A stretch of DNA of 36,850 nt, from positions 1-36,850 of the forward strand of contig JAFVAC010000074.1 of NCBI GenBank assembly GCA_017476265.1, in the 5' to 3' direction. Shown here in pieces: positions 3,935-22,791 of the stretch. The position numbers and the translations under genes were made by a program. Position 1 is the first letter of the stretch; each line of letters begins with the position of its first letter. The notes under the pieces are model-generated. The model made no database searches, was not told the DNA's origin, and was given only the letters and a program-made list of their open reading frames with translations. Origin of the DNA: Clostridia bacterium. Its GTDB lineage: Bacteria > Bacillota > Clostridia > Christensenellales > DTU072.

Positions 3935-5692
3935 TTATTTATTGTCGCTCTTCGGCTCGGCGACGCGGATATTCGCCTCGCGGAGTTGCTTTTCGGTGAC
4001 GGGACAGGGTGCGCCCATCAGTAGATCCTGCGCGTTCTTGTTCATCGGGAAGGCAATGATCTCGCGGATGTTGGGTTCATTTGCCAAAAGCATCACGATG
4101 CGGTCCACGCCGGGAGCGATGCCCGCATGAGGCGGCGCACCGAATTTGAACGCGTTGTAAAGGGCGGAGAACTTGCTTTCGATCACCTTTTCGTCATACC
4201 CGGCAATGGCAAAAGCCTTGACCATGATCTCCGGATCGTGATTTCTGACGGCGCCGGAGGACAGCTCGTAGCCGTTGCAGACGATGTCGTACTGATACGC
4301 CATGATCTCCAGCGGATCCTTGGTATTGAGGGCTTCCATACCGCCTTGCGGCATACTGAAAGGATTGTGGCAGAACTCGATCTCGCCGCTCTCCTCCCCT
4401 ATCTCGTACATCGGGAAGTCCACGATCCAGCAGAACTTGTAGACGTCCTTTTCGATCAGATCCATCGCATTTCCCAGTTCGGTCCGCAAATAACCGGCGC
4501 ATTTAGCGGTGTTCTTCTTGTCGGTCCCGACGACGAAAGCGATAAGAGCCTCCTCGGTCAAACCGAAGAAGTCGCATATTTCCTGTGCCTTTTTGGTCAA
4601 GAACTTGCTCACGCCCCCGCTCAGCGCGCCGTCTTTTGCGACTTTGACGTAATAGAAGGCGGAGTCGAGCTCCTTTTCTTTGACAAAATCGACCAAACTG
4701 TCGATGTATTTACGCGGCTTGTTGAATCCTTCGACCGCGATAGCCTTGACGGTCTTCCCCTCGAACAACGGGCAAGAAGAGCCGAGTAGCTCGGTCACAT
4801 CCTTGATGATGAGCGGATTGCGCAAGTCGGGCTTGTCGGTGCCGTAGTCGGCGATCGCGTCGAGATACTTGATCCGACGGAAGGGACCTTCGTCCACTTT
4901 CCAGGTCGTGAAAGGCTTGAATATCTCCGGCAGGACCGCTTCCAATTCGGCAAAGACGTCCTCTTGGGTCGCAAAGCACATTTCGATATCGAGCTGATAG
5001 AATTCTCCGGGCGACCGATCGGCGCGAGCGTCCTCGTCACGGAAGCAGGGCGCGATCTGAAAATAGCGGTCGAATCCCGACGTCATCAACAGTTGCTTAT
5101 ATTGCTGAGGCGCTTGCGGCAGGGCATAAAACTTGCCCGGATACAAGCGGCTGGGGACGATAAAGTCACGGGCGCCCTCCGGAGAAGAGGAAGTCAGAAT
5201 GGGGGTCGCTATCTCCAAAAATCCTCTCTCGGTCATCAGTTTTCTGATATGGCTGACGATCTTGCTCCTCAGGACGATCTTGTCCTTGACGGCGGGATTT
5301 CTGAGATCCAAAAAGCGGTACTTCAAACGCGTGTCTTCGCGGGAGGCGAGGCTGTTGGCGACCTCGAAGGGCAAGGCGGAGACGCACTTTCCCAGCACAT
5401 CGATCTCGTCGGGCTCGATCTCGATGAGCCCGGTGGGGAGATTCTCGTTGGGGGAAGAGCGGAGGATCACTTTGCCGCTGACGCGCAGAGTGCTCTCACG
5501 CGGGATCGCCCGCACCTTTTCCTTCATCTCCTCGTCGGAGACGGTGACCTGCGTCACGCCGTAAAAGTCACGCAGGACGAAAAACAGCACCGCGCCGAGG
5601 TCTCTGACGCTGTGCAGCCACCCGCACAGAGCGACGGTCTTGCCGACGTCCTCTTTGCGAAGTTCGTTACAGTTGTGTGTTCTCATACTCAT
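3935..5692 (-). CDS. aspS: Aspartyl-tRNA synthetase, bacterial type
   Basis: This class II synthetase charges tRNA-Asp in the cytoplasm. The 585-residue length is the bacterial type with an inserted GAD domain. The N-terminal OB-fold (CGWLHSVRDLGAVLFFVLRD) binds the anticodon. Motif 2 has FRDEDARADRSPGEF near residue 217, followed by QLDIEM. Motif 3 is GVDRIVMLL near residue 527. The ATG at 5690-5692 is chosen because a TTGGAG site lies 9 nt upstream; a TTG at 5707 overlaps that site and is not a likely start. It lies 37 nt downstream of asnS and is co-transcribed with it. A dedicated AsnRS next door is compatible with a discriminating AspRS, but that is inference. Confidence 0.97.
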   Translation of the reverse strand: MSMRTHNCNELRKEDVGKTVALCGWLHSVRDLGAVLFFVLRDFYGVTQVTVSDEEMKEKVRAIPRESTLRVSGKVILRSSPNENLPTGLIEIEPDEIDVLGKCVSALPFEVANSLASREDTRLKYRFLDLRNPAVKDKIVLRSKIVSHIRKLMTERGFLEIATPILTSSSPEGARDFIVPSRLYPGKFYALPQAPQQYKQLLMTSGFDRYFQIAPCFRDEDARADRSPGEFYQLDIEMCFATQEDVFAELEAVLPEIFKPFTTWKVDEGPFRRIKYLDAIADYGTDKPDLRNPLIIKDVTELLGSSCPLFEGKTVKAIAVEGFNKPRKYIDSLVDFVKEKELDSAFYYVKVAKDGALSGGVSKFLTKKAQEICDFFGLTEEALIAFVVGTDKKNTAKCAGYLRTELGNAMDLIEKDVYKFCWIVDFPMYEIGEESGEIEFCHNPFSMPQGGMEALNTKDPLEIMAYQYDIVCNGYELSSGAVRNHDPEIMVKAFAIAGYDEKVIESKFSALYNAFKFGAPPHAGIAPGVDRIVMLLANEPNIREIIAFPMNKNAQDLLMGAPCPVTEKQLREANIRVAEPKSDNK

Positions 5693-5729
5693 TTTCGTAT
5701 ACTCCAAAAATTAGTTTTGCTTCGTCTTT

Positions 5730-7103
5730 TTACATCAAGCCGCCGGCGGTACGCGGATACAGAATGACGTCTCTGATATTGTTCATGCCGGTGACATACA
5801 TCAGGATCCGCTCGAATCCGAGACCGAATCCACTGTGCGGCACGCTCCCGAAGTGGCGAAGTGCGATATAGTAGTCGTACTGCTCCTCCGGCATATTGCG
5901 CTCCCGCATCGCTTGGAGAAGTTTTTCCTCGTCCCACTCACGCTCGGAGCATCCGATGATCTCCCCTACGCCGGGCACCAAAAGATCGGTCGCCGCGACG
6001 GTCTTTCCGTCCGGGTTCTGCTTCATATAGAAGGACTTGATCGCCTTGGGATAGTTGATGACGAAGATGGGCTTTTTGAAGACCTCTTCGGTCAAATACT
6101 TCTCGTGTTCGGTCTGGATGTCCTCTCCCCATTCCGGCTTGAACACAAAGTCCTTGTCCGCCTTTTTCAAGATCTCGATCGCCTCGGTGTAGTCCACGAC
6201 GCCGAACTTGTGGCTGACGACATTCTTTAATTTTTCGATCAGACCGTGTTCCACAAACTTGTCAAAGAAAGCAAGTTCCGCCGGGCACTTGGTCAGGACG
6301 GTGTTGATGATATGCTTGATGAGGTCCTCCGCGATCTCGATGATGTCGGGCAGTTCGGCAAAAGCCACTTCCGGCTCGATGTGCCAGAACTCCGCCGCGT
6401 GGCGCGGGGTATTGCTGTTTTCGGCGCGGAAGGAGGGTCCGAAGGTGTATATCTTGCCGAAAGCCATCGCCGCGACCTCGCCTTCCAGCTGTCCGGACAC
6501 GCTGAGTCCGGCGCTTTGCCCGAAGAAATCGTTTTTGTCGTACTCCTCTTGCGACTTATACTGCGGCGCATAGCCGAGCGTGGTCACCTTGAAGACTTCG
6601 CCCGCGCCCTCGCAGTCGCTCCCCGTGATGATGGGCGTGTTGACGTAGACGTAGTGCCGGGACTGGAAAAACTCGTGTATGCAGGCGCCGACGACGCTTC
6701 TTACGCGAAAAACCGCGTTAAAGGTGTTGGTACGGACGCGCAAGTGCGGGATCGTCCGCAAAAATTCCATCGTGCTGCGCTTTTTTTGCAAGGGATAGTC
6801 GGTCGGGCAGTCCCCTAAAAGGACCACCTCTTTCGCGTTGATCTCCACGCTGCCTTTCATGACCAGGCTCTCGACGAGAGTGCCTACGACTTTGACCGAA
6901 CACCCAAGGCGCATAAATTCATCGTTTTTGATCTCGTTCTTATCGATGACGATCTGCAAGTGCTTTAAGGTCGTGCCGTCGTTGATCTCCAAAAATGCCA
7001 TATTTTTGGAGTCGCGGAAGGTGCGGACCCAACCGCACACGGTCACTTCGCTCCCGATAGGCGTCACCCCGGAAAAAATATCTACGACGTCGGTATGTTT
7101 CAT
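5730..7103 (-). CDS. asnS: Asparaginyl-tRNA synthetase
   Basis: This enzyme charges tRNA-Asn directly with asparagine. The 457-residue length is typical. The N-terminal OB-fold (VTVCGWVRTFRDSKN) is followed by the class II core. Motif 2 (FGPSFRAENSNTPRHAAEFW, near residues 218-237) is specific for AsnRS rather than AspRS, and motif 3 is GLGFERILMYVTGMNNIRD near the C-terminus. It ends YPRTAGGLM rather than the more usual FPRTPGxxxF tail. The ATG at 7103 has AAAGGAG upstream. First gene of the asnS-aspS operon, with its own promoter; no T-box leader is visible. Confidence 0.97.
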   Translation of the reverse strand: MKHTDVVDIFSGVTPIGSEVTVCGWVRTFRDSKNMAFLEINDGTTLKHLQIVIDKNEIKNDEFMRLGCSVKVVGTLVESLVMKGSVEINAKEVVLLGDCPTDYPLQKKRSTMEFLRTIPHLRVRTNTFNAVFRVRSVVGACIHEFFQSRHYVYVNTPIITGSDCEGAGEVFKVTTLGYAPQYKSQEEYDKNDFFGQSAGLSVSGQLEGEVAAMAFGKIYTFGPSFRAENSNTPRHAAEFWHIEPEVAFAELPDIIEIAEDLIKHIINTVLTKCPAELAFFDKFVEHGLIEKLKNVVSHKFGVVDYTEAIEILKKADKDFVFKPEWGEDIQTEHEKYLTEEVFKKPIFVINYPKAIKSFYMKQNPDGKTVAATDLLVPGVGEIIGCSEREWDEEKLLQAMRERNMPEEQYDYYIALRHFGSVPHSGFGLGFERILMYVTGMNNIRDVILYPRTAGGLM

Positions 7104-7198: not shown

Positions 7199-7245
7199 TC
7201 TTTTCGCCATCGTTACCCTCCCAAACCGAACGGCAAAACGGAAAA

Positions 7246-7271
7246 GAGAGGTCGGACTTGCCCGACCTCTC
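7246..7271 (-). terminator. Terminator of the giant surface-protein gene
   Basis: A 10-bp perfect stem (GAGAGGTCGG 7246-7255 with CCGACCTCTC 7262-7271, 6-nt loop) is followed on the minus strand by TTTTCCGTTTT. It lies 22 nt past the TAG stop at 7293. Confidence 0.85.
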
Positions 7272-7292
7272 CGAAAAACCGTTTTTCTCCCG

Positions 7293-8999
7293 CTAATTCA
7301 GTGCGGAAGCGGACTGTCCGCGCACAAGATAGCTTGAGAGATTCGACGCGCTGAAGTTGACGTAGCCGACGGCGTCTTCGCCCTGGTTGAGGCAGATGAC
7401 CGGTTGACCGTTCTGTCCGCCGTACATCCAGAAGTAGGGCTGCTTTGCGTCAAGGTTGCCGTCCAGCGTGTCCGAAGCCGTCGCAAGATACGGGTGCGCG
7501 ATGTAGGGCAAGCCCGTATCGGGATTGGTCTTGAACACTCTGCCGTCTTCTTTGCCGTAATAGCCGAGTACGCCTCCGTAGATGACGCGCATCGACGAGC
7601 TGGCGATCTCGTACCCACAGACAAAGACCGTTGGTCCGATCAGGTCTTCGTGCGAAGTGACGCAGAGCCCGTCCACGATAGGATCTCCGCTCGGCGACGT
7701 GTACGGCGCCCTGAAGCATGCGTAGTTCTCCTTTCCGGTCGCCGGGTCATATCCGACGGACGAAGTGAAGCCGAGTCCGCGAGTGGTGGTCGTACTCAAC
7801 CGTTTGTTGTATCCGATATCCATACTGGTCCAGCTGTTAGTCGTAGAGGTATTGTCGCAGCACCAGCAGTAGTTGCAGGCGTTGCCGTACTTGGTGCCGT
7901 CGTCCGTCAGACCGGACACGATCCCGAAGATACCGCCATCCACCCACACGCCGGCACGGTTGGGCAAGTACTTCGGTTCGCCCAAGTCCACCATACCGAC
8001 GATATCGTCTTTTTCGGTGAATTTCACCCAGCCTGCGTCGGCGGAACCCTGCTTGCCGTCGTCGGTCAAGTTCTCGTCGCTGCTCAAGCCATAGGCGCCC
8101 ATATTGCGAATGAAGTTACAGCCCTTGGTGTAGCAACTGTTGATGGCGTAACTGCCGTACTTGGTCCCGATGGACGTGGAGCCGACTATACCGCCGAGGG
8201 TGGCGCCGACGCGCCCCAGTTCTACGCTGTACGAGTCGGTCTTGAAGCCGTCGCACCAGATATACCCGGCAAAGGACAAGCTGCTCCCGACCGCATAGCA
8301 ACTCTGGACCCTGCTCATCGGCTGTCCCTTGTATTTATCCCACGGCATCTGCGCTTCCGCATAGGTCGCCACGGTATCCCACCCGAAGAAGGTACTCCCC
8401 TGTTGCGTCACGTTGAGATAGCCGATCAGTCCGCCCAAAGAGACCGCCCAGGCGACCTCGTTATTGTTGCTTTGCGGTGCGCCGTTCTTGTACTTGGCGG
8501 TGACGCGGGCATACTGGGTATAGCTGTTGTAGAGCGCGCCGGACAGGTATCCGACCAAGCCGCCGGCATAGGTATTGTTGCCCTGAATGGTCTCGCCCGC
8601 GACGTAGCTCCTCGACTGTTCGTATTGACTGCTGTTGTCGAGGATGGTCTGATAATTGGTATCGGCGGTGTTCTTCTTCTGATAAGCGTACAGGACGGTG
8701 TCCTCCATGCCGCCCAGACCCGAGTTCGTATTGCCCGATCCGCCCACGACGGAGCACTCGTCGATGACGGTCCCCGAGGTCGCCGCGCCGACGATCGTGC
8801 CGTATGCCGCCATCGGAGTCATCGTTATCCACGCCATCATATAGAACTGATAGCTGCCGTAGCTTGGCGCATACAGGGAGAAGCCGTGTATTATGCTGTT
8901 CTTGGCGACGCCGACCACACCGCCTGCCACGGGTCCGCTGACGTTGAGGACGCCGGTGATGGTTGCCCCGGTTATGTTGCCGTACAGGTAGCTGTCCAC
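7293..8999 (-). CDS. C-terminal GLUG-repeat segment of the giant surface protein
   Basis: This 568-residue open segment carries recurring GLUG-type motifs: GGVVGVAKNS, GGLVGYLSGALYNSY, GGLIGYLNV, and GGIVGST followed by NSCYTKG. These build beta-helical stalks in secreted adhesins. It follows an in-frame TAA at 9003-9005 and shares the frame of the preceding segment, and its first motif is split by that stop. The first possible start is GTG at 8997-8999, with no Shine-Dalgarno site, so independent translation is doubtful. It ends SASALN with no LPxTG motif, no transmembrane helix and no dockerin. It is best read as the C-terminus of the composite protein. Confidence 0.7.
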   Translation of the reverse strand: MDSYLYGNITGATITGVLNVSGPVAGGVVGVAKNSIIHGFSLYAPSYGSYQFYMMAWITMTPMAAYGTIVGAATSGTVIDECSVVGGSGNTNSGLGGMEDTVLYAYQKKNTADTNYQTILDNSSQYEQSRSYVAGETIQGNNTYAGGLVGYLSGALYNSYTQYARVTAKYKNGAPQSNNNEVAWAVSLGGLIGYLNVTQQGSTFFGWDTVATYAEAQMPWDKYKGQPMSRVQSCYAVGSSLSFAGYIWCDGFKTDSYSVELGRVGATLGGIVGSTSIGTKYGSYAINSCYTKGCNFIRNMGAYGLSSDENLTDDGKQGSADAGWVKFTEKDDIVGMVDLGEPKYLPNRAGVWVDGGIFGIVSGLTDDGTKYGNACNYCWCCDNTSTTNSWTSMDIGYNKRLSTTTTRGLGFTSSVGYDPATGKENYACFRAPYTSPSGDPIVDGLCVTSHEDLIGPTVFVCGYEIASSSMRVIYGGVLGYYGKEDGRVFKTNPDTGLPYIAHPYLATASDTLDGNLDAKQPYFWMYGGQNGQPVICLNQGEDAVGYVNFSASNLSSYLVRGQSASALN

Positions 9000-9002
9000 G
9001 GC

Positions 9003-12000
9003 TTAAGCGACCAAACCGCCTATCTTGCCGTACTGCGTAGCGTTCGCCACACCGTCGCCCTTGACGGAATCGCTCGAAGCCATCATATTCAGACCGCTGG
9101 TGATATTATAGCGGTCGGTATTTCTGGACTCGATGAAGCAGTTCTCCATATACGACTTGGACATCGTGCCGATCAAACCGCCCACGTTGACGGTGGTGCG
9201 ATTGATATTGCCGAGGAACATATTGATGTTGTCGGAGGCGCGCAGTGCGGTGATCTTGGTGCCGTTGTTGGCGGCGCCGATCATGCCCGCCGCGGTCAGA
9301 GAGTCGGTCTTGTAGTTGACGTACAATCCCGCGGACGCGTCGTCGGAGGACATAACGCAGTTGGTGATGAACGAACTCCAGTTGTCCCTGGTGCCGTTGC
9401 CGTCGGACACGCCGATAAGCGCCCCCACGCTACCGGTACTGCCTTTGATGGTGATGTCCGTCTTTCTGTTGCTTTCGGATATCTTGATCGTGCAGTTGTC
9501 CGCATTGCTGTTGTAGAAGTACCCGGCAAGGAGCCCCACGCCGAGCGCGTTGTTGGCTGTGACGAAGACTCTGGAGCCGTTGCCGTTGCCGTCGGTGTTG
9601 GTCGTGACGCCCACTCTATATGTATCTTCTCCTTCCACAAAGTGGATCTGGTCGAAGTGCGCGTTGTACGCCCGCGCCGTCAGGACTCCGACGTATTGCG
9701 GCGAGCCGGTATCCACCGTCCCGAAGGAATCGAGGACGAGGTATGCGTTGCCGATGTTCACGTTCTTGATCGTACCGCCGTTGATACAGCCGAAGATCCC
9801 GTAGCCGGACAGACCGTAGTAGTCGAAGTCGGCGAGCGGATTGGTCGTCGTTGCGTTTTTGCTCAAGAGGTTCGTTTGGTCGGCAGCAAGACCGTAAATC
9901 GTGTAGCGGTTGGAACCGTTGGAACCATCCAGCGTACCGTCGAATCCCAAGTACTCTCCGTTCTCTTTTGCAAAGGTCAGCGGGACCCAAGCCTTCGAGT
10001 TGCCGTACGGAAGCGAGGAGGCACTCGAGTTGACGTCCTGCAACTTGATATCGGCGTTGAGTTTGAAGAATACGCCCTCGCAAGTGTGTTCGTTGTAGTT
10101 GAAGTACAATCCGAGATTGCGGAACTGCGTCACGTTGGTGATGGAGTAGGGTGACGACTCGGTCCCGTTGCCGGTGTTGATGGGAGCGAACCTGCCGCCC
10201 TCGCCAGTATAATTCAACAGACCGAACAGCTGACTGCCGCCGGAGATATACCCGCCGCCGTCGTAGTCGATGGTGACGTAGCGACGGAAGCTCGGATCGT
10301 TGGCGTAGAATAAGTATTCGCCGTTGGTCGCGCCGGCAGAGTTGACGGCGTATGTGATATCCTTGAGCGCCTTGATTCCGTTGCCGGAGCGGAAGCCGTT
10401 GAGGGAATAGTCGAACCTGCCGAAGAGGTTGGGCACGTTGACCAAAGTCGTCTTGATGTAGACCTGCCCGTCGGGTCTGAGACTTGCCGCCGTCCCCTCT
10501 CCGTACGTCTCGTCCACGTCCCAGACCGTCATCTTGGAGACGGTATTGTCGGTGAGATAGTTGGCGAAAGCGCTCGGCAATGTCACACCGGACTCAAACA
10601 TCATATTCCTGAAGATCAACACGGCGTCGGAGATGTACTGCAGGTCGTAGTTGTAGGTGCCTTCGACCCTGATCTGCTCGCCGTCAAAAGTGCCGTCGGG
10701 CTCGATGCGCTTTTCTTTGCCGGTGTTCTTGAACTCGTACCGATAGTACTCGTGATCGTAGGACGGATCGTATCCGTGTGCGCCGAGGGAGGTGGAGTTG
10801 GTCATGTCGGTGGCGTTGCCGTACTGTGTATTCACCGCGACGTTCAGTCGATAGGTCGCGCCCACGTCTACCAGGCACTGCAAGAACTTGCTCCCGCTCT
10901 CGTAGACGTCGAGATCGTTTTTGATCGTGACGGTCTCGTTGCTGCACTCGACGGACTCCGTCGCTCTGCGGAAGTACTCGGAGTTGTACCCGCCGGACGT
11001 GAGTGCGACGGACACGTCGGGGGCGTTCTCGTACGCGTATGCGCCGAGGTCCTTCGCCTGATTGTAGCTCTCTTCGCTGCCGGCGACGTTGTAAGAATAG
11101 ATGGAGTGACGATACTGCACCACGAAGACCGCTTGCAGTTCGTACGCCTCGGCGGGTGGCTCGTCCCCGTACAGGTTGAACAGGTCGAGATCGATCCCGT
11201 TGTAGCCGATCGGATCGGTGGGATCCTGCCCGGCGTAGTAAATGTAGCGGAAAGCCGCTCTGCGCTCGGTGGGCGAGTAGTCGTAGTTCCAGTTCAGTCT
11301 CCAGCCGACGAAGCGGTAGCGCAATTCCATAATGGCGGCGCCGTCTACGTAGGTGTAATTCAAGGGCACCAACTTGCCGGCGTCCTTGCCCCCTGTCGCT
11401 TCCACGGTCGCATTGTAGTAATCGACGTGGACGGTGCTGCCGTAGTCGAACTCTCCGTTCATTCCCGTCCCGTCGATAGAGAGGAAGAACTCGGTGTTTT
11501 GGACGTTATCGCTGATGACCGGGTGGATGACGTTCGAGAAATTGTCCACATAGTCTCCGCTCCCCAACTGCTGGGTATAGGCGATCTCGCTGACTTCCAG
11601 TCGGGTGACTTTGACGAACTTGGGTCGGATGATCAGCGGGCGGTCGTTGTCGTAGTTGTTTTCCGTGGTCGTACTCACGGCGTACGGCATAGCGGGCGTC
11701 CCGTCGATCAGGCGGGCGTACAGATACGACAAGTCGAAGTCGTACAGCGTGAAGCTGTTGTCCACGGTGGTATAGTTGCCGTCGGCGTCCTGACCGTAGC
11801 TCCTGTCCTCATATCGATACGTCACGTCCTCGTACGTGCCCGTGTTCCAATTATAGTACTGCCAGCCGATGAGCTTGACGGTGGAAGGCGTGGAGGTCAA
11901 TTCCAGCGACAGTATGGCGTCCGACCAGTAGTCGTAGTCGTACACGTCCGCGTTCATATAGCGGTAGAACATGCGGAAGTTCTTCATAGCCGAGTAGACC

Positions 12001-15000
12001 ATATTCGAGGCGGAGGCGGCGCCGGAAGTCCGACTCAACTCCGCATAGGACAGATTCCAACCGTATTGCGTGTCGTATCCGGTGGCGCTTCTTCTCTCCG
12101 TGACGACGTCGGAGCGGTCCGTCGCATAGGATAGCAAGGTGTTGTAGTCCAGATCGGCAAGCATCGTGGGATCGTTGGTCATCGGGAAGGTACTCACCGT
12201 CGTATCCATCGGCACGCCGCCTTCGCTCTCATTGTAGACGTAGGTCTCGGTGCGGACGGCGCCGGAGGACCAGCTGTTCCAGTGCGATCCGTTATAGTAA
12301 TACAACTCGTTGATGACCATGACGTCGATGAGCGGGACGTAAAGGGCGCGGACGATGAGATCCACCGCTTCGGTACGCTCGTTGCTCAAGTCAGAGACCT
12401 TGGGCAAGAGTCCTTCGGTGTCCGCCTCGTTGACGTAGAAGGTCGCTTCCGACACGGCGCTCGGGTCGGGCAGAGCCACGTCGAGGTCGGCGAACGTGTT
12501 GTACTTGTTGACGTACCATCCGACGAATCTGTACCCTGCAGGAGCGGCCGGCGCGGTCAACGTAAAGGCACTGTCGTACTGGACGTACAAGAAGTTGTCT
12601 CCCACCGGATCTTCGGACGTAGCGGGCGCATAATTGTTGCTGTCCACCGAGTCAAGGGATATCGTTTGGGTACTCTGATCGGCGACGTTGGGATAACAAT
12701 ACTCGACGGAATACTCTCCCGACTTGTCGATCTCGCCGTTGTCTACGACGTACTCGTTCCTGTTGGCGAATTGCACGCCGTATTGGAGTTTGTAATAGCG
12801 ATAGAACTCGAACTCCAATTCCATATCGCCGCGCATAATGATCGTAAAGATCGTATTGCCCTTGCCGTCAAAACTGCGCTTGACGGAAAAACCGTTGGTG
12901 TCGTCATAGATGAAGTTGTCGGGGTCGTACTCCAACCACTCATAGGTCCCGGTCATGAAGACGACGTACCCGAGAGCGCGTGATCTGTCATAGTCGATCT
13001 GACGGACCAAAAGTCTGCTGAGGACGAAGTTCTCTCTCGGCTTGACGGTGATCTTGAGTTCTTTCCCGACCGTGGTCGTGCTGTTGTAGACGTAGCCGCC
13101 GGAGGGCTCTACGGTGCCGTTGTTGAAGAGGATGTCGCCTCCGTTGGCTCCGCTGACTGCGCTGAAGGTCGATTTGGTAAAGGTCACACGCCCGTAGACG
13201 TTGTTGACGATATACAACTCGGTGTCGGAGTCGATGATCTTGCCCTTTCCTTTGTCGATAGGTCTGCCGCGGTCGTCCACGGAGTCGTAGCTGTCGTCCG
13301 CGTACATCGGGACTTCGGTGTATTTTTCCCTGACGGGATCATAGGTACAGAGGATCGCCCCGGTCTGCCCCGCCATCGCGTTGGAGTCGGTGTACTTGAA
13401 GCTGACGAAGTTGCCGACCAGTACGGTGTAGGTATAGGTATCGGCGACTTTGCCGTCGTCGCTCTCGTTGGCGAGCAAGACGCCGTTCTCGTAAGCGTCG
13501 AGCGTAGCGTAGCTACGGTACTCGTTGCCGTTTTTGGTGGACGTGGCGAACTTGAAGGGGTTGGGCAAATGCACGACGACTTTGGTCTCCTGTTTGAAGA
13601 CCAGACGGAAAGAGCGGTCGCCGATGGCGTTGATCGAATAGGTAAAGATATAGTCCGTCCCGCCGGAAGCGTTGACCGAACTCTCTACCGTGACGCCGTT
13701 GACTCCGCTGACCAATCCGAGATAGCTCGCCTCCCGCAGCTCTTCCATCGCGTAGAGCTGATAGCCCTCTTTGGCGTGGAAGTCCACGCGGACGGTGGAG
13801 AAGTAGTCGTACCGATTGCCGCTGACGAATTCTTGTCTGACGCCTTCGGTGACGACGCTGACTTCCACGTTGCCGGCGAGACTGTCCAGCGGTACGAAGC
13901 CGTTCGTCCCCTCGCCGAATCCGGGATAGAGGGTACGGAAGCTCTCGTCCAGCGTGTAGGCGTAAGACCGAACGTCTACGGCGTAACTTATAATATGAGT
14001 CGTGAAGAAGAAGTACACGGTCCGCTCGTTGGTGAGGACGTTGACGCCCGGGAGCGTGGCGTGATTGAAGCGGTACCCTCCGCGCGCGGAGAGATTGCTC
14101 GGGATCGAGAAGTTGGTCCCGCTGAGTCTAACGTCGTCGGGACCGGTCACGTCGTCGTAATCCCCGCCCGAACGGATCACAAGCCCGGTGACCTCGTACC
14201 CCTCGAACAGGGCGGGCTCCACCGAAATAGACCCGTAGTGCGACTCCGACTGCGGTGAATACACCGACAAAGTCGTGCCGTCGGTGGCGCCGCTACGCGT
14301 GTTGCCCGACTCGTCGATGAGCGTGGTCCAGTCGCGGTACTCGTTTCCTATATAGATCTTGACCGAGTACGGTATGGGCGCTATACGCATGCTGACGACG
14401 ATGCGGGACAGATCCACGTTGTTTCTCCCTTCGATCAAGGGATCCTGCACGTTGAAGCGGATGACGTAGGAATAGTTCCGGGCGCCGGATCCGCTGATGA
14501 GCGTGACCGTCATATTCATCCTCTCGTCGATCACCGAGGCGGTATTGAGATCGTTCCACTCGTATCCGTTGGCACTGATGGTGCTGAGCATAAAGCCTTC
14601 GGGCGCGATAAACGTATACAGGATATAACCGTGATGCTCCACGACCATACGGACGTCGGGACCGTCGCGCTCCAGCAGTTGCGCATACTGGGCGTCGCCG
14701 TTGACGAGAACGTCGTTGGCGTTCTTGTCCTTGACGTCGAGATTGACAGCGGTGTCGTTCGTCACGCCGAACGCGTCTACGCGATTGATCGAAGAATACA
14801 AGGTGTAAGTCTTGATGACCACGTTGAGCTCCACTTCGAGGTCGTAGCGGACGTACAACGCCGGGAGCTGACTGGTCTCGTTGTGGAAAGTGAAGCGCTT
14901 TTTATCGTTCCCTAAATTGACAAGATCGATGGTCGTGACGATCTCATCGCCGGCATTGTCCACCACGGGGACGTACTCTCCGGTCGTCTCGTCGTACTTG

Positions 15001-15884
15001 ATCGCGCGGATCACGGCGGTCGTATCGGTGATGCGATAGCCGTTGTTGGGCGTGAGAATGCCGAGGAGCTCGTCGTAATAAGCCGTCCTGAGGACCAGCG
15101 TATTGCTGTCCGCCCAATAGCCCTTGGCGTCGCCGTCCACGTCGGTCGCCCGCGGGAATCCGGTGGTGTTTTGCGGATTGTACTGCGTGGTCACGCTAAG
15201 CAGGGACGCGTCGTTGAACTTATAGCGGAAGACGTGCGTCTCTCGCTCGAAGACCGCGCGTACATAGACGTCTCCGGTCACGTTTTTGATCACGAGGACG
15301 TCGCGGATCTCGTTGGTGGAGTCGTTGCGCAATGCGTAGAATATCTGCTCGTCAAAAGCGTCGTCGTCCTCCGTTTCGGTCAGATCGACGAGGTGCTCGA
15401 CCGCGTCGCCCGCCCTGCGGACGTACAAAGCGTTCAGACTGTAGCCCTGTCCGACGGTGACCTTGACGTAAGCGCGCTCGTTCCAGGGGATGGTGCTGCC
15501 GGACTCTTCGGTGAGCCCGTTGACCGTCTCGCCGACGATGTCTTCGGTATAGCCGATCTCGGTGTTGATGGCGTAGCGCATGATCCTGAACGAGCATCTT
15601 GCCGTCACGTCTCCGACGACGACGTAGCCCGAACCGTTGGGTCCGGCATAACTCGCCTCGACCTGTCTGTCGCCGATGAGGACGGGGATCTCGTTGCTAC
15701 CGAGGAAGAAGTTATAGAGATAATAGCCCGTCGTGCTGAATTTGGGCGTCATAACGAAGGATATCTTGCTCCCGTACGCCAGCTTTATGCCGTAGTCGAA
15801 GAACAGGGATATCTTCGAGGTGTAGAAGTTAATGATCGGATACGATTCCTCTAAGATCACCTGTTGATACTCGGCGTCGTACAC
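9003..15884 (-). CDS. Central InlB-B-like repeat and GLUG segment of the giant surface protein
   Basis: This open segment has about 2,293 residues from the first GTG. It continues the frame of the upstream segment after the TAA at 15891-15893. Most of it is tandem divergent InlB-B/bacterial-repeat units of roughly 80-100 residues, recognisable by GYRFVGWYVNKYNT, YRFVGWRLNWNYD and G-rich beta-strand spacers. Near composite codon 3,670 it changes to the start of a GLUG region (GTESSPYSITNVTQFRNLGL, then DGTLDGSNGSNRYTIYGL), where strands of a parallel beta-helix are expected. The start codon has only a weak AAGG upstream. It ends with GGLVA directly before the second TAA. Secreted and surface-exposed by inference. 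Confidence 0.75.
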   Translation of the reverse strand: MYDAEYQQVILEESYPIINFYTSKISLFFDYGIKLAYGSKISFVMTPKFSTTGYYLYNFFLGSNEIPVLIGDRQVEASYAGPNGSGYVVVGDVTARCSFRIMRYAINTEIGYTEDIVGETVNGLTEESGSTIPWNERAYVKVTVGQGYSLNALYVRRAGDAVEHLVDLTETEDDDAFDEQIFYALRNDSTNEIRDVLVIKNVTGDVYVRAVFERETHVFRYKFNDASLLSVTTQYNPQNTTGFPRATDVDGDAKGYWADSNTLVLRTAYYDELLGILTPNNGYRITDTTAVIRAIKYDETTGEYVPVVDNAGDEIVTTIDLVNLGNDKKRFTFHNETSQLPALYVRYDLEVELNVVIKTYTLYSSINRVDAFGVTNDTAVNLDVKDKNANDVLVNGDAQYAQLLERDGPDVRMVVEHHGYILYTFIAPEGFMLSTISANGYEWNDLNTASVIDERMNMTVTLISGSGARNYSYVIRFNVQDPLIEGRNNVDLSRIVVSMRIAPIPYSVKIYIGNEYRDWTTLIDESGNTRSGATDGTTLSVYSPQSESHYGSISVEPALFEGYEVTGLVIRSGGDYDDVTGPDDVRLSGTNFSIPSNLSARGGYRFNHATLPGVNVLTNERTVYFFFTTHIISYAVDVRSYAYTLDESFRTLYPGFGEGTNGFVPLDSLAGNVEVSVVTEGVRQEFVSGNRYDYFSTVRVDFHAKEGYQLYAMEELREASYLGLVSGVNGVTVESSVNASGGTDYIFTYSINAIGDRSFRLVFKQETKVVVHLPNPFKFATSTKNGNEYRSYATLDAYENGVLLANESDDGKVADTYTYTVLVGNFVSFKYTDSNAMAGQTGAILCTYDPVREKYTEVPMYADDSYDSVDDRGRPIDKGKGKIIDSDTELYIVNNVYGRVTFTKSTFSAVSGANGGDILFNNGTVEPSGGYVYNSTTTVGKELKITVKPRENFVLSRLLVRQIDYDRSRALGYVVFMTGTYEWLEYDPDNFIYDDTNGFSVKRSFDGKGNTIFTIIMRGDMELEFEFYRYYKLQYGVQFANRNEYVVDNGEIDKSGEYSVEYCYPNVADQSTQTISLDSVDSNNYAPATSEDPVGDNFLYVQYDSAFTLTAPAAPAGYRFVGWYVNKYNTFADLDVALPDPSAVSEATFYVNEADTEGLLPKVSDLSNERTEAVDLIVRALYVPLIDVMVINELYYYNGSHWNSWSSGAVRTETYVYNESEGGVPMDTTVSTFPMTNDPTMLADLDYNTLLSYATDRSDVVTERRSATGYDTQYGWNLSYAELSRTSGAASASNMVYSAMKNFRMFYRYMNADVYDYDYWSDAILSLELTSTPSTVKLIGWQYYNWNTGTYEDVTYRYEDRSYGQDADGNYTTVDNSFTLYDFDLSYLYARLIDGTPAMPYAVSTTTENNYDNDRPLIIRPKFVKVTRLEVSEIAYTQQLGSGDYVDNFSNVIHPVISDNVQNTEFFLSIDGTGMNGEFDYGSTVHVDYYNATVEATGGKDAGKLVPLNYTYVDGAAIMELRYRFVGWRLNWNYDYSPTERRAAFRYIYYAGQDPTDPIGYNGIDLDLFNLYGDEPPAEAYELQAVFVVQYRHSIYSYNVAGSEESYNQAKDLGAYAYENAPDVSVALTSGGYNSEYFRRATESVECSNETVTIKNDLDVYESGSKFLQCLVDVGATYRLNVAVNTQYGNATDMTNSTSLGAHGYDPSYDHEYYRYEFKNTGKEKRIEPDGTFDGEQIRVEGTYNYDLQYISDAVLIFRNMMFESGVTLPSAFANYLTDNTVSKMTVWDVDETYGEGTAASLRPDGQVYIKTTLVNVPNLFGRFDYSLNGFRSGNGIKALKDITYAVNSAGATNGEYLFYANDPSFRRYVTIDYDGGGYISGGSQLFGLLNYTGEGGRFAPINTGNGTESSPYSITNVTQFRNLGLYFNYNEHTCEGVFFKLNADIKLQDVNSSASSLPYGNSKAWVPLTFAKENGEYLGFDGTLDGSNGSNRYTIYGLAADQTNLLSKNATTTNPLADFDYYGLSGYGIFGCINGGTIKNVNIGNAYLVLDSFGTVDTGSPQYVGVLTARAYNAHFDQIHFVEGEDTYRVGVTTNTDGNGNGSRVFVTANNALGVGLLAGYFYNSNADNCTIKISESNRKTDITIKGSTGSVGALIGVSDGNGTRDNWSSFITNCVMSSDDASAGLYVNYKTDSLTAAGMIGAANNGTKITALRASDNINMFLGNINRTTVNVGGLIGTMSKSYMENCFIESRNTDRYNITSGLNMMASSDSVKGDGVANATQYGKIGGLVA

Positions 15885-15890
15885 CGCGCC

Positions 15891-18800
15891 TTACAATACG
15901 ACGATGGAGACGGTCATATAGTTGGCGATGAGTTCGGGATCGATGGTGGAGGTCAGGTTCTTGTCCACGACGCTGACCGAGAAGTCCACGTCGTAGACGA
16001 GGATCCGGAAAGACGCGACTACCTTGACCGCGCCGACCACGTTGGTGCTGTAGCGGTTCTCGGAGACGAAGCCGTTCGACTCGCTGCCGTTGAGCAAGAG
16101 CGAAGTGCGTTCGTACCCGAGCGTCGGCGCCACGGTCAACGTGTACCGGAGACCGTGCTCGACCACCATATTATAGGTGACGACCTCGTCGTTTAGGACC
16201 TGTCTGTACTCGTACGTCCCGTTATTGTTTACAAAGGCAATGTCCGTCTTGTAGTAGGGCACGCCGGACACGACGACGACGTCCAGACTGCGGATCAGTT
16301 CCACCCCCAACACAATGTCGGTCAGATCGTACCGATATCCGCCCTCCACCGCGACGAGGTTGGGGTCGGCAAAGGTCGTCCTCTTATAAAAGACGCCGTT
16401 TCTGTAATAGTACGCCTTGTCGGGCGTCTGCGCTCCGTCAAAGAGATATACGCCGGAGACGTTGGCGTTGGGATGGGCGAAGTTGACTTCCACCGATCCT
16501 GTGTCCGCCTCCCCGATCTGCTCCGCCTCGAACGCATACAGGTTGCGACGGAAGACGGCGGTAATTCCGGCGATATTGGCTACGACGCCGGAGTCTCCGG
16601 AGTCGTCCGCAACGAAGCGGTTGAACCAGATCGTGCCGCCGTTCTTATCAAAGTACCCGTCGGTGTAGTAGCGGGTGACCACGTTGTCCCCCACGCTGGA
16701 AGTATAGTCTATGGTCAGAGAATAGAGATAGTAGCCGTTGCTGATCGTCGGGGTGACGTCGAAGGAGAAGTTGCTGCCGTGTTCTATTCCATAGTATCTG
16801 TTGCCCGTCAATACGAAGCCGGACGTGAGCGTACCCATACCGGCGTCGGAACTGAAGTTTGCCGAGTCGTTGACGAGATTATAGACGAAGTAATAGCGGT
16901 TGATCTCATAGACAACGCGCACGTTGGTTCTGCCGGTCACGCCGGAATAGACGCCGGCGGAATATGCGCCGCGATAGGTATAGACGGCGGTGGTGCGCTC
17001 GTTTTCGTCGTCGGTCTCAAAGGTCAGATCGGTCACGCGGGTGCCGTTGATGTACAGTTCGCTGACGTGATACCCGTGATCGGCGGTCATACTGATATAG
17101 ATATACGCGCCGTGGGGGGCGTAGTCGGTGACCGAATCCCCTACGCTGAGAATGGTGGTGCCGTTGACACTCGCTCCGTCTACGGATATCTTGTAGGTAT
17201 TGACGCGGAACTCCGCCCTCAGATCCATATCGCCCGTAGCGACGTAACTGTACAGTCCGTACGTATAGTGCCCGGTGTTGGGATCCGCGACCAGACCGCT
17301 CCAGTTGGACGCCTCGAAGGAGATCCGCTCGCCGTTGATGTAGACGGCGTAGATATAGCAATGGTCGGAGGCGGTGACGTCCACCGATACGAGGTCGCCG
17401 TACGAGGGACGGGACCCGGTGCTGACGGCGCCGTTTTCTCCTGCGGAGGTCGTCAGGACGTACTGTTTGGGGGTGGCGGAAGCGACGACTTCCACCTGCG
17501 CCCCGGCGGTAAAGGACCCGCCGTCGATCGTAAAGGCGTACTTCTCTTTCCCTCTTGGGTCGGAATCAAGGGCGTACTCGGTGCCGTTTTCTTTATCCCT
17601 GACAAGCACGGTCGAGATGGTATAGCCATAGCGGGCGGTCAAAAGCACTTCGTTGTCCGCAGTGGGATCCGCCACGATATAGCGAGCCGATCCGACGATC
17701 TCATCTCCCGTGGCAAAGGCGAGCGAATATCCGCCCTCGTACACGTCCGCGAGTCTCGCTTCGGCGCGCAGTCGCACCGTCACGTCGCCCTTGACGTCGG
17801 GCAGGAAGAAGTCGTACTCGCTCTGATTGTAGTGGACGTCTTCTATCGTCCCGTCTACCGAAATCGAAGCGATACGGACGCCCTCTCCGGCGGTCACTTT
17901 GACGCTCGCCGCGTCGTGATAGTAGTAGTCGAAGGAGACGGAGGCGTTGAGTTTTCTTCCGTCGGCGAATAGGTTCCCGCCGGCGAGGTTTTCATTGACG
18001 AAGACGACTTTGTAGCCGATCCGCAAGAAGGTGAACACGACGTCCTTGTCCTCGTCGATATCGCTGATCGTCAGGCGGTAGTTCTCCCCTTTGACGGCGG
18101 TGCTGACGGGTACGTACTCGCCCTCGCCGATCCTGTATCCGTCGACGTAATACCCCGCGTCGGGGGCGGCGACGAGGACCGAAGTCCCACCGTAGGCGGG
18201 ATTCGTCTCGGACACGGTCACATTGCCGTACCCGATCGACTCCGCGGTGACGGAATAGGAAATATCGCGGAATCCGAAGATGATGTTGTAGTGGTCGGCG
18301 ACGGAGACGCGAAAATCCACTTCGGTCACTCTGCCGTCCCGGACGACGGAGGTGTCGTAGACGTCTTTGCCCGCCACCCCGAGGGTCTCGTACAGGAAGT
18401 CCAAGACCTCTTCATACGCCTCGGCGTCGGTGTTGAAGACGGTGTACACGTCGTCTCCGAACTCTTGGGTCTTGACAAAGATCACGTCCTCGTCCCCGTC
18501 TATCCGCTGGCAGAAGACGTAGGTCGTACCGTCTTGCGTCCCCTCTCCGTACAAGAAGTAATATTCGCCGTTAATGAAGGCGAGGTCCACGCCGTACTCT
18601 ACGCCGTTTATCTTATAGGAGTAGAGGGTGACGTCGGGATGCGAATTGGTGAACAGGTCGTACAACACGCCGTTGATACGCATCGACGCGAGGACCTTTC
18701 GGATCGAACCGTCGAAGTCTCCCTTGACGCGGAGGTATACTTCGTCGCCGAAGGCGTATGTGCCCTCCCCGGCAAACGGCGTCTCCGTCGCGCGGTCGTA

Positions 18801-21176
18801 GAGGTCGGTCTCCCAAACGGTCCCGCCCTCTCCTACGGATACGTTGAGCATATATTCCGCAGTGGCGTACTCCACGGTAACGATAACGTCGGACTTGACG
18901 TTCTCCAACACGAAGGAATAACTCTTGGTCGTATCGCCGAAGACGTCACCTAAGGACGCGCCGTCCACGCGGACGTCCTTGATGTAGAAGACGGGATTCC
19001 TACTGTCGACGCGTATGGACGCGCTATCGTTGTAGTTGACGTACAAAAGAGTCTCCGCGTCGGTATACAGTCCGCCGTCATAGCCGATGACGCCGACGTA
19101 CTCGGAGGAGCCGTTGTTGACGGTGATCGTAAGTCGTATGGGCGTAAAGCGCGCATAGAGGGTGTTGTCCGAAGTCTCCTGCACGATATAAGAAGTACCG
19201 CCCACCCCTACGCCGTAGTCGTACGGAGTGCCGGTGGTGCCGTAGTACCAGAGCGCGGAGGACAGGCGGTTTCCTTCCATCGCCTCCACGACCAGTTCGT
19301 AAGAGTGATCTTCCGTGATCGTATACTCGCCGAGGACGGACACGGTCCTGGAAAGATCCTTGCCTTCGGCGTCCACCTTGTTTTTGTCGATGATAAGTTG
19401 TGCCGTGCCGGAGCCGTCGAAATCCAACTTAAGGACGTGGCTCTTCGGTGCCCAGATCGGTATGATGTAGAGTCTGTGACGGGAAATGAAGTCCTCGTTT
19501 TCGATGTGCGCCTGCTCGGCGTAGAGCTTGGTCCTGTCGTCCACGGACGTCAGAGTCAAAGCGTCCTGCCAGCCGAGGAAGACGTATTTCGACTTGGTCG
19601 GATTGGTGAGCGGCAAGCCGCCGTTGGTCCCGCTGGCAAAGGCGTCCTGATAGGTCACGACGGTAGTGTGCCACTCGACGCTCTCGTCTCTGTCGTCCAC
19701 ATAGGAGAAGATCAGAGTGTACTGGATGCGCTTCCACTTGGCGACCAAAGTCGTCGGCTGTTCAAAGGTCTCCGCGCCGGTGATGAGCGTGCGGGACTCG
19801 TCCCCCAGCTCATACCACCCCTCAAACTGCATCCCGACCGGTTCCGCCGGGACGGGAAGTCCGCTCGTGAGATCGACATCGCCCACCTTGTAGCTGTTGA
19901 GGCTGGTGTTGAAGGGCAAGCCGGTGACCTTGAGTTCTACGTTGTCGTTTTCGGGGTTTTCATAGTTGACGAAAGTGATGTCGCTGTTGCTGTAAGCGAA
20001 GATCGCACGGATCTTGACCTGCGCGACGTTTTCATCGGGCGTGAAGCTCAGTACATAGTCCTGCACGCTGCTGCCCTCTCGGGTGGAGGAGAAAGCGACT
20101 TGCTTTCCGTTGACGCCCACGGTGACGTTGGCGCTGCCGTCCTTGTCTACGCGGGTCAGATTGCCGTCTAAGTCCTCGATGAGCCAGTAAGCGAATTCAC
20201 GCGAGTTATAGGGGGTGGCGGTGATGGTCGCCCTCTGATCGTGCGCGAAATACCCTTCGACGTTGACGCTCTCGTAGTCCACGCTGCGGATGATCAGTTT
20301 GCCCATAGCCTGCCCGTACTTGTCGAGAGGCACGGTGACTTGATAGTCGGTCGCCCGCTTGACGTACTCGGGCGTGAAGTTCATGTTGCGGTCGATGGTG
20401 ACAAGGGAGTTTTCCCCGTCCACGTCCACGTAGAGATTGGGCGTCCAGCCGGTGAAGACGTAGCCGTACTTCTCCATCTTGGGGTCGTCGCCGTAGCTCG
20501 GGATCTTGGTCGGGACCTCGCCGTAGGTGACCTTCTCTTCCGAGGCGACGGTTCCGTCGTCGTAGTAGAAGCGGACGTAGTAGGACGCCTTTTCGAAGAT
20601 GGCAAGATTGAGCAATCCGTCCTTGGTGACGCGGAGGTCCTTGCGCTGAGCAAGCGGATAGCCGTCGTTCCACTTGACGAAGACGTACCCGGTTTCCGGC
20701 ACCGCGATGACGGTGGCGGCGTCCTCGCCGCTTTGGACCACTTGGTCCATCTCCCCTTGTATCTTGCCGCCGACGGAGGCGCGATAGCTGATATGGCAGG
20801 CGATATCGACGACGTTAAACTCCACCGTCTGCTCGAACCCGCCGTAGCTTAACACGACCTTTTGCGAACCGGTGGACGTGACGTCCAATCCGGTGAATGT
20901 GGTATTGCCCAAGACGATCTCGTCGACAAAACCGTCGGAATACGTCACGCGCACGGGGATCTGAGAGGCATTGCTCCCCACGCCGATGTTGTTTCCGGAG
21001 ACGGGCTCTATGCTGACGATCGTCCTCTCGGGCGTAATGGTCGCGTCCAACGCGGGTAAGACCGCAAGCAGAGTCACAGCAAGCGCCGCCGCGACCAAAA
21101 CGATCACACCGATGATGATCTTGTATGCCGACCCCGATAGGATCCTTCTTTGTCCGGATTTGTAACTGCCTCTCAT
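15891..21176 (-). CDS. N-terminal segment of the giant surface protein (signal anchor, Ig-like, InlB-B repeats)
   Basis: This 1,761-residue segment begins with a basic stretch (MRGSYKSGQRR) and one hydrophobic helix at about residues 20-42, which is a signal peptide or signal anchor; ALDA before T47 is a possible cleavage site. An Ig-like domain follows (about 48-124, ending in the YGGFEQTVEFNV strand pair). Then come many bacterial-repeat/InlB-B units, for example GYVFVKW at 163-169 and YGYVFTGW at 237-244, and VGMQFEGWY near 449. The ATG at 21176 is chosen because TTGGAGTG lies 8 nt upstream and a TTGAAA-17-TATAAT promoter lies behind it. It ends VSIVVL at an in-frame TAA; the same repeat unit continues beyond it. 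Confidence 0.85.
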   Translation of the reverse strand: MRGSYKSGQRRILSGSAYKIIIGVIVLVAAALAVTLLAVLPALDATITPERTIVSIEPVSGNNIGVGSNASQIPVRVTYSDGFVDEIVLGNTTFTGLDVTSTGSQKVVLSYGGFEQTVEFNVVDIACHISYRASVGGKIQGEMDQVVQSGEDAATVIAVPETGYVFVKWNDGYPLAQRKDLRVTKDGLLNLAIFEKASYYVRFYYDDGTVASEEKVTYGEVPTKIPSYGDDPKMEKYGYVFTGWTPNLYVDVDGENSLVTIDRNMNFTPEYVKRATDYQVTVPLDKYGQAMGKLIIRSVDYESVNVEGYFAHDQRATITATPYNSREFAYWLIEDLDGNLTRVDKDGSANVTVGVNGKQVAFSSTREGSSVQDYVLSFTPDENVAQVKIRAIFAYSNSDITFVNYENPENDNVELKVTGLPFNTSLNSYKVGDVDLTSGLPVPAEPVGMQFEGWYELGDESRTLITGAETFEQPTTLVAKWKRIQYTLIFSYVDDRDESVEWHTTVVTYQDAFASGTNGGLPLTNPTKSKYVFLGWQDALTLTSVDDRTKLYAEQAHIENEDFISRHRLYIIPIWAPKSHVLKLDFDGSGTAQLIIDKNKVDAEGKDLSRTVSVLGEYTITEDHSYELVVEAMEGNRLSSALWYYGTTGTPYDYGVGVGGTSYIVQETSDNTLYARFTPIRLTITVNNGSSEYVGVIGYDGGLYTDAETLLYVNYNDSASIRVDSRNPVFYIKDVRVDGASLGDVFGDTTKSYSFVLENVKSDVIVTVEYATAEYMLNVSVGEGGTVWETDLYDRATETPFAGEGTYAFGDEVYLRVKGDFDGSIRKVLASMRINGVLYDLFTNSHPDVTLYSYKINGVEYGVDLAFINGEYYFLYGEGTQDGTTYVFCQRIDGDEDVIFVKTQEFGDDVYTVFNTDAEAYEEVLDFLYETLGVAGKDVYDTSVVRDGRVTEVDFRVSVADHYNIIFGFRDISYSVTAESIGYGNVTVSETNPAYGGTSVLVAAPDAGYYVDGYRIGEGEYVPVSTAVKGENYRLTISDIDEDKDVVFTFLRIGYKVVFVNENLAGGNLFADGRKLNASVSFDYYYHDAASVKVTAGEGVRIASISVDGTIEDVHYNQSEYDFFLPDVKGDVTVRLRAEARLADVYEGGYSLAFATGDEIVGSARYIVADPTADNEVLLTARYGYTISTVLVRDKENGTEYALDSDPRGKEKYAFTIDGGSFTAGAQVEVVASATPKQYVLTTSAGENGAVSTGSRPSYGDLVSVDVTASDHCYIYAVYINGERISFEASNWSGLVADPNTGHYTYGLYSYVATGDMDLRAEFRVNTYKISVDGASVNGTTILSVGDSVTDYAPHGAYIYISMTADHGYHVSELYINGTRVTDLTFETDDENERTTAVYTYRGAYSAGVYSGVTGRTNVRVVYEINRYYFVYNLVNDSANFSSDAGMGTLTSGFVLTGNRYYGIEHGSNFSFDVTPTISNGYYLYSLTIDYTSSVGDNVVTRYYTDGYFDKNGGTIWFNRFVADDSGDSGVVANIAGITAVFRRNLYAFEAEQIGEADTGSVEVNFAHPNANVSGVYLFDGAQTPDKAYYYRNGVFYKRTTFADPNLVAVEGGYRYDLTDIVLGVELIRSLDVVVVSGVPYYKTDIAFVNNNGTYEYRQVLNDEVVTYNMVVEHGLRYTLTVAPTLGYERTSLLLNGSESNGFVSENRYSTNVVGAVKVVASFRILVYDVDFSVSVVDKNLTSTIDPELIANYMTVSIVVL

Positions 21177-21258: not shown

Positions 21259-21287
21259 ATTATATAATATTGCGCGCGACATTTCAA
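21259..21287 (-). promoter_or_regulatory. Promoter of the giant surface-protein gene
   Basis: Minus strand TTGAAA (21282-21287), 17-nt spacer, TATAAT (21259-21264). The leader to the ATG at 21176 is about 75 nt. Confidence 0.85.
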
Positions 21288-21877: not shown

Positions 21878-21904
21878 ATTGATAACGCAAAGGAGGCATT
21901 GAAA

Positions 21905-22267
21905 ATGACATATACAAGATATGGTGAATTTTTGCGCATTCTTCGTGTGAAATATCACGAAGTTATGGGTGACACGGCAAAAGTACTAAATGTAAAAGTC
22001 CCTTTTGTTTCTGCGGTAGAAAGCGGAAAGAAGAATGTCCCGGAAGAATGGGTTCCGAAGCTCATTGAGCATTATAAATTAAACGCGCAAGAACAGAATG
22101 AATTAAGAGAAGCCATAGAAGAATCTAAAACACAAATGAAGATTAATCTATTCTCTGCTACCGAACCTAAACGCCGTCTCGCTATTCAATTTCAACGGTC
22201 GTTCGAAGACCTTGACGATGAAACAGCAAAAGCCATAATTAAGCTTTTGAATAAGGAGGAAGATTAG
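21905..22267 (+). CDS. Xre-family helix-turn-helix transcriptional regulator
   Basis: This 120-residue DNA-binding protein has a Cro/CI-type HTH at about residues 8-50. The turn and recognition helix include VKVPFVSAVESGKKNVP, and a helical C-terminal tail ends KLLNKEED. The ATG at 21905 has AAAGGAGG 8 nt upstream, a near-perfect site; a TTG at 21899 is too close to it. The stop codon overlaps the GTG of the next gene by one base (TAGTG), so the two are translationally coupled. Next to an ImmA-type protease, the usual arrangement is that the protease inactivates this repressor to switch on a mobile-element or stress programme. That role is inferred from the family, not shown. Confidence 0.88.
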   Translation: MTYTRYGEFLRILRVKYHEVMGDTAKVLNVKVPFVSAVESGKKNVPEEWVPKLIEHYKLNAQEQNELREAIEESKTQMKINLFSATEPKRRLAIQFQRSFEDLDDETAKAIIKLLNKEED

Positions 22268-22791
22268 TGGATTATTTGACCAAACCGGCAAGCAGAAACG
22301 ATTTGCGTTACTGCGCAAAATTCTTTCGCTCCATATGTCATTTCACAGCAGACGAGCCGATTGACCCCGTGGTGCTTTTGGATCAATTACGGGATTTGGA
22401 TGGGTTTTCCGACGTTAACTATGAAATAGTCGAGGATTCCATCCTGCCCGGCAATGTCCCCGCTCAATGCATTATGTCGGAAGAGAACTACTTGATTCAA
22501 ATAAAAGAATCTGTTTATATTGGGGCGTATGAGAAAAAAATCGGTGGGCACAGAATGCATATTATGCATGAAATAATGCATGTATTTGCTGACAAATTGG
22601 GCTTTTCGCCCATCCTGACTCGACAATTAACGGACGAAACACCTTGTTTTAGACGATTGGAATGGATTGTTAAAGTGCTTGCCGGCGAAGTGATGATGCC
22701 CTATGAAGCGACCCAAAATATGTCAGTTTCGGATATCATGAATGTATATGGCGTTTCTAAATCGGCAGCGGAAACACGCTTGAAGTATTAA
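22267..22791 (+). CDS. ImmA/IrrE-family zinc metallopeptidase
   Basis: This 174-residue protein has the family's zinc site HEIMH at residues 101-105 and a downstream E132 in the helix EWIVKVLAGEVMMP that would supply the third ligand. Relatives cleave a partner Xre repressor, as ImmA does for ImmR in ICEBs1 and IrrE for DdrO. The GTG start at 22267 overlaps the regulator's stop and has AAGGAGG about 7 nt upstream inside the regulator's 3' end. The motif is intact, so activity is plausible. The partner would be the preceding Xre protein. GC content is low and matches the neighbouring cassette genes. Confidence 0.9.
   Translation: MDYLTKPASRNDLRYCAKFFRSICHFTADEPIDPVVLLDQLRDLDGFSDVNYEIVEDSILPGNVPAQCIMSEENYLIQIKESVYIGAYEKKIGGHRMHIMHEIMHVFADKLGFSPILTRQLTDETPCFRRLEWIVKVLAGEVMMPYEATQNMSVSDIMNVYGVSKSAAETRLKY

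What the first reader, a model, noticed from the sequence alone, without database searches (positions are those of the whole stretch)
9003..15893. One 4,628-codon surface-protein frame broken by two in-frame TAA codons without frameshift
Segments ending at 15891 and 9003 and starting after them share one frame exactly (13,884 nt from the ATG at 21176 to the TAG at 7295). The repeats continue across the first TAA, and the second cuts a GLUG motif (GGLVA-stop-AVDSYL). Only one promoter, one good ribosome site and one terminator serve the region. Random decay would be expected to bring frameshifts as well as stops. Options are very recent nonsense mutations, stop-codon read-through giving three nested product sizes, or a mixed-strain consensus.
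Basis: partly seen in the sequence, partly recalled or inferred. Interest (0 to 1): 0.75.

Follow-up and report, generated by a model that had tools for sequence, protein, structure and literature searches.

The report
Giant surface gene with spurious stops
A giant cell-surface protein gene that is unbroken in related gut bacteria carries two stop codons in this one draft genome, most probably wrong letters in the assembly (or fresh private mutations), because the same draft also has stops inside single-copy genes a cell should not be able to live without.

Summary
One frame runs from the ATG at 21176 to the TAG at 7295-7293 (4,628 codons), broken only by TAA at 15893-15891 and 9005-9003, with one promoter, one ribosome site and one terminator. 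It is one gene. All 39 other species of the bacterial family (11 genera) carry a homologue, in 23 of them as a single open frame above 4,000 codons, and none has a stop within its matched stretches. Programmed read-through therefore has no comparative support. In addition, about 1.14 Mb of coding sequence from the same draft genome holds 11 further in-frame TAA/TAG codons in otherwise intact genes, including thrS and def (the only full-length copy of each; unbroken in all nine sister species), rpmE, lysC and parB, but only one clear frameshift. No suppressor tRNA was found, and RF1 and RF2 are intact. The draft thus contains substitution-type consensus errors, which most simply explain both TAAs. 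Genuine private nonsense mutations are the main rival: two stops in this gene exceed the genome-wide rate (P about 0.008), and stops are over-represented in surface proteins. Raw reads would decide. The more durable finding is the family-wide giant surface protein itself.

The parts
7293..21176 (-). Reading frame of one giant cell-surface protein (4,628 codons including three stops): N-terminal membrane anchor, InlB-type repeat domains, long beta-rich body, C-terminal solenoid-like beta region
15891..15893 (-). First in-frame TAA, codon 1762; orthologues have a sense codon in the aligned column
9003..9005 (-). Second in-frame TAA, codon 4058; orthologues have a sense codon in the aligned column; lies in a predicted strand of the solenoid-like region
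15894..21176 (-). Segment 1 (1,761 aa): membrane anchor, Big_3-like (below cut-off) and divergent InlB B-repeat domains
   Evidence: all 40 family genomes searched have a match
9006..15890 (-). Segment 2 (2,295 aa), no named domain; 46% identical to the orthologue in G005 over its whole length
7296..9002 (-). Segment 3 (569 aa), C-terminal part of the solenoid-like region and tail
21259..21287 (-). Promoter-like site TTGAAA-17-TATAAT
   Evidence: consensus match only; 6 found, 7.0 expected by chance in the region
7245..7272 (-). Intrinsic terminator (12-pair stem, T tail)
5730..7103 (-). Asparaginyl-tRNA synthetase-like gene; follows the giant gene also in G005, G009, G004 and G002
3935..5707 (-). 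Class II (Asp-type) tRNA synthetase; close to the giant gene in seven congeners
   Evidence: type assigned from sequence likeness, not by a family search

Best explanation
The locus is one gene for a giant surface protein conserved throughout a family of uncultured Clostridia. The two TAA codons are single-base substitutions private to this draft genome and most likely wrong consensus bases of a metagenome assembly. SHOWN: one frame, no stop in any of 39 relatives' matched stretches, and in-frame TAA/TAG in ten other otherwise intact genes of the same draft, including the only full-length thrS and the only def. INFERRED: these two genes are essential, so their stops cannot be real null alleles of living cells unless suppressed; the draft therefore contains base errors, and the two TAAs belong to the same class. 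On this reading the living organism makes one protein of about 4,627 residues.
For: Single frame. Homologue in 40 of 40 family genomes, 23 of the 39 others with an open frame above 4,000 codons and none with a stop in the matched stretch. Sense codons at both aligned columns. In-frame TAG in thrS: single full-length copy, none in nine congeners. In-frame TAG in def: single copy in each of ten species, only this one broken. In-frame TAA in rpmE, TAG in lysC and parB; further cases. 13 stops against one clear frameshift in about 1.14 Mb coding. RF1 and RF2 intact; no CUA/UUA-anticodon tRNA found. Published: poor reads mainly raise internal stops rather than frameshifts, and an excess of internal stops marks poor assemblies (PMC11017572).
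Against: From the other 11 stops one expects 0.135 in this gene; two has P about 0.008 before allowing for how the finding was selected. Seven of 13 stops lie in secreted-like proteins that hold 18.5% of codons (P about 0.0045; by gene 5 of 11, P about 0.04), hinting that some are genuine. AspS, which lies 1.6 kb downstream on the same contig, shows no excess of odd residues, mild evidence against a very high local error rate. No reads were available.
Confidence: 0.55

Rival explanations
1. Genuine, recent nonsense mutations in the sampled strain or population: the gene is a young pseudogene, or makes only a membrane-anchored fragment of 1,761 residues, while the base errors elsewhere in the draft are a separate matter.
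For: Two stops in one gene exceed the genome-wide rate, and stops are over-represented in secreted-like proteins. A second surface-like gene also has two stops (L138). Neighbouring AspS looks clean.
Against: The gene is present in all 40 family genomes and without stops wherever it was matched in the other 39. No frameshift or other decay in 13.9 kb. The same draft has stops in genes that cannot be null.
Confidence: 0.36
2. Stop-codon read-through or suppression gives three nested products, possibly genome-wide by a suppressor of UAA and UAG.
For: 13 in-frame stops are all TAA or TAG, none TGA, including in single-copy thrS and def. The draft is 93% complete, so a suppressor could be missing.
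Against: TGA share expected under random substitution is only 16%, so none in 13 has P about 0.1. No suppressor anticodon found. RF1 and RF2 intact. No relative has a stop in the matched stretches. UAA is the least leaky stop (PMC5289835). No special RNA structure after either TAA (z -1.2 and +0.9). The 13 stops show no shared context.
Confidence: 0.06
3. Three separate genes, the downstream ones starting by re-initiation just after each TAA.
For: A GTG lies three codons after the first TAA with a weak AAGG before it, and a GTG two codons after the second.
Against: No separate promoter or strong ribosome site. Segments 2 and 3 would lack a membrane anchor or signal. Orthologues are single frames.
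Confidence: 0.02

Closest known systems
Spurious pseudogenes (internal stops) caused by assembly or read errors (PMC11017572)
   Same: In-frame stops without frameshifts in otherwise intact genes, including ones that cannot be null, private to one assembly.
   Different: That study did not examine metagenome-assembled genomes; read depth and quality here are unknown.
Listeria-Bacteroides / InlB B-repeat surface proteins (Pfam PF18998, PF09479)
   Same: N-terminal anchor followed by InlB-type beta repeats.
   Different: Over 4,000 residues, mostly without a named domain, and conserved across a whole family.
Beta-solenoid passenger and adhesin domains (autotransporters, Gemella IgA1 protease, tailspikes)
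   Same: The model of the C-terminal 950 residues is a run of short strands like a solenoid; the best Foldseek hits are of this kind.
   Different: No hit below E 0.03, low TM-scores, model pLDDT 62; resemblance only.

Membership tests
Programmed or suppressed stop-codon read-through gene | In-frame stop conserved at the same place in relatives | tested here: not met
   No stop in the matched stretches of 39 relatives; sense codons at both columns
Programmed or suppressed stop-codon read-through gene | Suppressor tRNA or altered release factor | tested here: not met
   No CUA/UUA anticodon in the assembled part; RF1 and RF2 intact; draft is 93% complete
Programmed or suppressed stop-codon read-through gene | Leaky stop context or downstream structure | tested here: not met
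   UAA followed by G at both sites; RNA folds z -1.2 and +0.9
Programmed or suppressed stop-codon read-through gene | Peptides spanning the stops | not testable with these tools
   No proteome available
Spurious internal stops from consensus error | Stops in genes that cannot be null, private to this assembly | tested here: met
   thrS and def (only full-length copies) broken here, intact in all nine congeners; essentiality itself is general knowledge, not tested
Spurious internal stops from consensus error | Substitutions far outnumber indels | tested here: met
   13 in-frame stops against one clear frameshift in about 1.14 Mb coding
Spurious internal stops from consensus error | Reads disagree with the consensus base | not testable with these tools
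   No reads available
Ordinary nonsense pseudogene | Stop present in the organism's DNA | not testable with these tools
   Needs reads or a second genome of the species
Ordinary nonsense pseudogene | Relaxed constraint or further decay | tested here: not met
   Coding signal remains strong around both stops; no frameshift in 13.9 kb; a very young pseudogene would look the same
GLUG-motif protein (PF07581) | Match above the curated cut-off | tested here: not met
   No match in this gene; the only genome match is on another contig (C42)
InlB B-repeat protein (PF18998) | Match above the curated cut-off | tested here: met
   Segment 1: 53.6 bits against 23.6; orthologues likewise

The most novel reading that the evidence does not exclude
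The organism tolerates UAA and UAG inside genes genome-wide, through a suppressor tRNA or other factor lying in the unassembled 7% of the genome, so that thrS, def, rpmE and the giant surface gene are all decoded across real in-frame stops (none of 13 is UGA).
Probability: 0.05. Interest if true: 0.85.

Novelty: not a real feature. Interest (0 to 1): 0.2.

Why it matters
It shows that in-frame stops in a draft metagenome genome should be checked against single-copy essential genes of the same draft before read-through or decay is proposed. It also brings out a giant surface protein conserved in all 40 searched species of a bacterial family, which deserves study in its own right. If the stops were real and decoded, this would be a bacterium with genome-wide tolerance of UAA and UAG.

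Tried and rejected
RF1 loss as a cause of TAA/TAG tolerance: rejected; the 'TAA' reported inside prfA is its natural end. Suppressor tRNA: anticodons of the assembled tRNAs were read directly or excluded by pattern; none found. Alternative genetic code: rejected; TAA, TAG and TGA all end long frames (508, 240 and 300). Collapsed repeats as a source of misassembly: no DNA repeat of 24 nt or more in the gene. Most same-frame ORF pairs in the first scans were neighbouring genes with their own ribosome sites and were discarded, as were most apparent frameshifts (overlapping genes or model slips). Same-species DNA: a 30-base probe across the first TAA found nothing in viral contigs; other collections were capped or hold one genome per species. 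Missense test on AspS and AsnS: inconclusive. Structure search: no significant match.

Full report
THE OBSERVATION. Reading 21176 to 7293 on the minus strand gives 4,628 codons with TAA at codon 1762 (15893-15891), TAA at codon 4058 (9005-9003) and a terminal TAG. There is no frameshift. Signals for one transcription unit are present: a promoter-like TTGAAA-17-TATAAT, GGAG before the ATG, and a strong terminator after the TAG. Neither break has a normal start site behind it; only a weak AAGG-GTG follows the first. The gene holds no DNA repeats of 24 nt or more, and Pfam's GLUG model does not match it.

ONE GENE, CONSERVED ACROSS A FAMILY. The window is a whole contig (C58) of a draft genome of 2.0 Mb in 122 contigs, 93% complete. 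One sister genome, G004, has a contig of the same length (82,332 bases) as a contig of the rumen-type isolate RUG11213 labelled 'Clostridiales', so the genus is probably an uncultured Clostridia lineage. Every one of the nine other species of the genus carries the protein; five have it as a single frame of 4,455 to 4,938 codons and four are split by contig ends. The N-terminal part is found in all 40 genomes of the family, 11 genera; 23 of the 39 relatives show an open frame above 4,000 codons, and none has a stop inside a matched stretch of the giant protein (the one hit with a stop, in G015, is a different 848-codon repeat protein). In four close relatives it is followed by asnS and an aspS-like gene as here, and in three more by the aspS-like gene alone. 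Domains: membrane anchor, divergent InlB B-repeats, otherwise unnamed. A 950-residue model of the C-terminal part is a run of short strands resembling a solenoid (mean pLDDT 62, pTM 0.75); the second stop falls inside one strand. Structure search gave no significant match.

WHAT STANDS AT THE STOPS ELSEWHERE. In an alignment of the congeners, all readable orthologues have sense codons at both columns. Intact copies thus exist; the stops are private to this draft among the genomes held.

THE SAME THING HAPPENS ELSEWHERE IN THIS DRAFT. I scanned about 1.3 Mb of the genome (1.14 Mb coding) for in-frame stops in otherwise continuous coding sequence. Besides the two in the giant gene there are 11: lysC TAG, thrS TAG, parB TAG, rpmE TAA, def TAG, a CobW-like gene TAG, two TAG in one lipoprotein-like gene (L138), and one each in surface-like genes of L153 (TAG), L057 (TAA) and L064 (TAA). 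Some of the last group rest on coding signal alone. ThrS has a single full-length copy here, with one TAG, and the nine congeners have none; def is single-copy in all ten species and broken only here. Both are taken as essential from general knowledge. Only one clear frameshift turned up, in a repeat-type surface gene (L114 near 13802).

INTERPRETATION. Stops in the only thrS and only def cannot be real null alleles of a living cell. Either the consensus is wrong there or the cell decodes these stops. Against decoding: no tRNA with a CUA or UUA anticodon in the assembled part, intact RF1 and RF2, no conserved stop in any relative, no shared context, no RNA structure, and UAA being the least leaky stop (PMC5289835). 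The absence of TGA among 13 stops is not significant (expected share 16%). For error: 13 stops against one frameshift is the pattern expected of base miscalls; PMC11017572 reports that low-quality reads mainly increase internal stops, and that excess internal stops mark poor assemblies, though it did not study metagenome assemblies. If all 13 were errors the implied rate is about one wrong base in 3,500.

WHY NOT MORE CERTAIN. Two stops in the giant gene exceed expectation from the rest (0.135 expected; P about 0.008), and stops are over-represented in secreted-like proteins (7 of 13 against 18.5% of codons). The finding was selected for having two stops, and errors may cluster where coverage is low, but the excess leaves genuine private nonsense mutations as a serious rival (0.36). 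AspS on the same contig shows no excess of odd residues. Raw reads would settle it.

VERDICT. Ordinary as a finding about stops; the giant protein itself is worth separate attention.

Noticed in passing
window 7293-21176 and homologues in 39 relatives: A giant surface protein of about 4,000-4,900 codons with an N-terminal anchor occurs in all 40 searched species (11 genera) of the family, near asnS/aspS in the closest ones. Such conservation of a giant surface protein is unusual and its function is unknown.
   Followed up: partly
L177:6981 (thrS), L194:4501 (def), L061:6657 (rpmE), L049:6478 (lysC), L115:16519 (parB), L185:482 (CobW-like): In-frame TAG or TAA codons in otherwise intact housekeeping genes of the same draft genome.
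   Followed up: yes
L138:17850 and L138:17973: Two TAG codons 41 codons apart in one lipoprotein-like gene; a second gene with a pair of in-frame stops.
   Followed up: no
L114 near 13802 (minus strand): The one clear frameshift found, in a repeat-type (MBG-like) surface gene.
   Followed up: no
window 21899-24290 (+): A small cluster next to tRNA-Leu: an ORF resembling an HTH regulator, an ImmA/IrrE-type metallopeptidase (PF06114), a DUF4417 protein and two small ORFs; looks like a remnant of a mobile element.
   Followed up: partly
window 30190-35250 (-): A 1,686-residue lipoprotein-like protein with no Pfam or NCBIfam match; frame intact.
   Followed up: no
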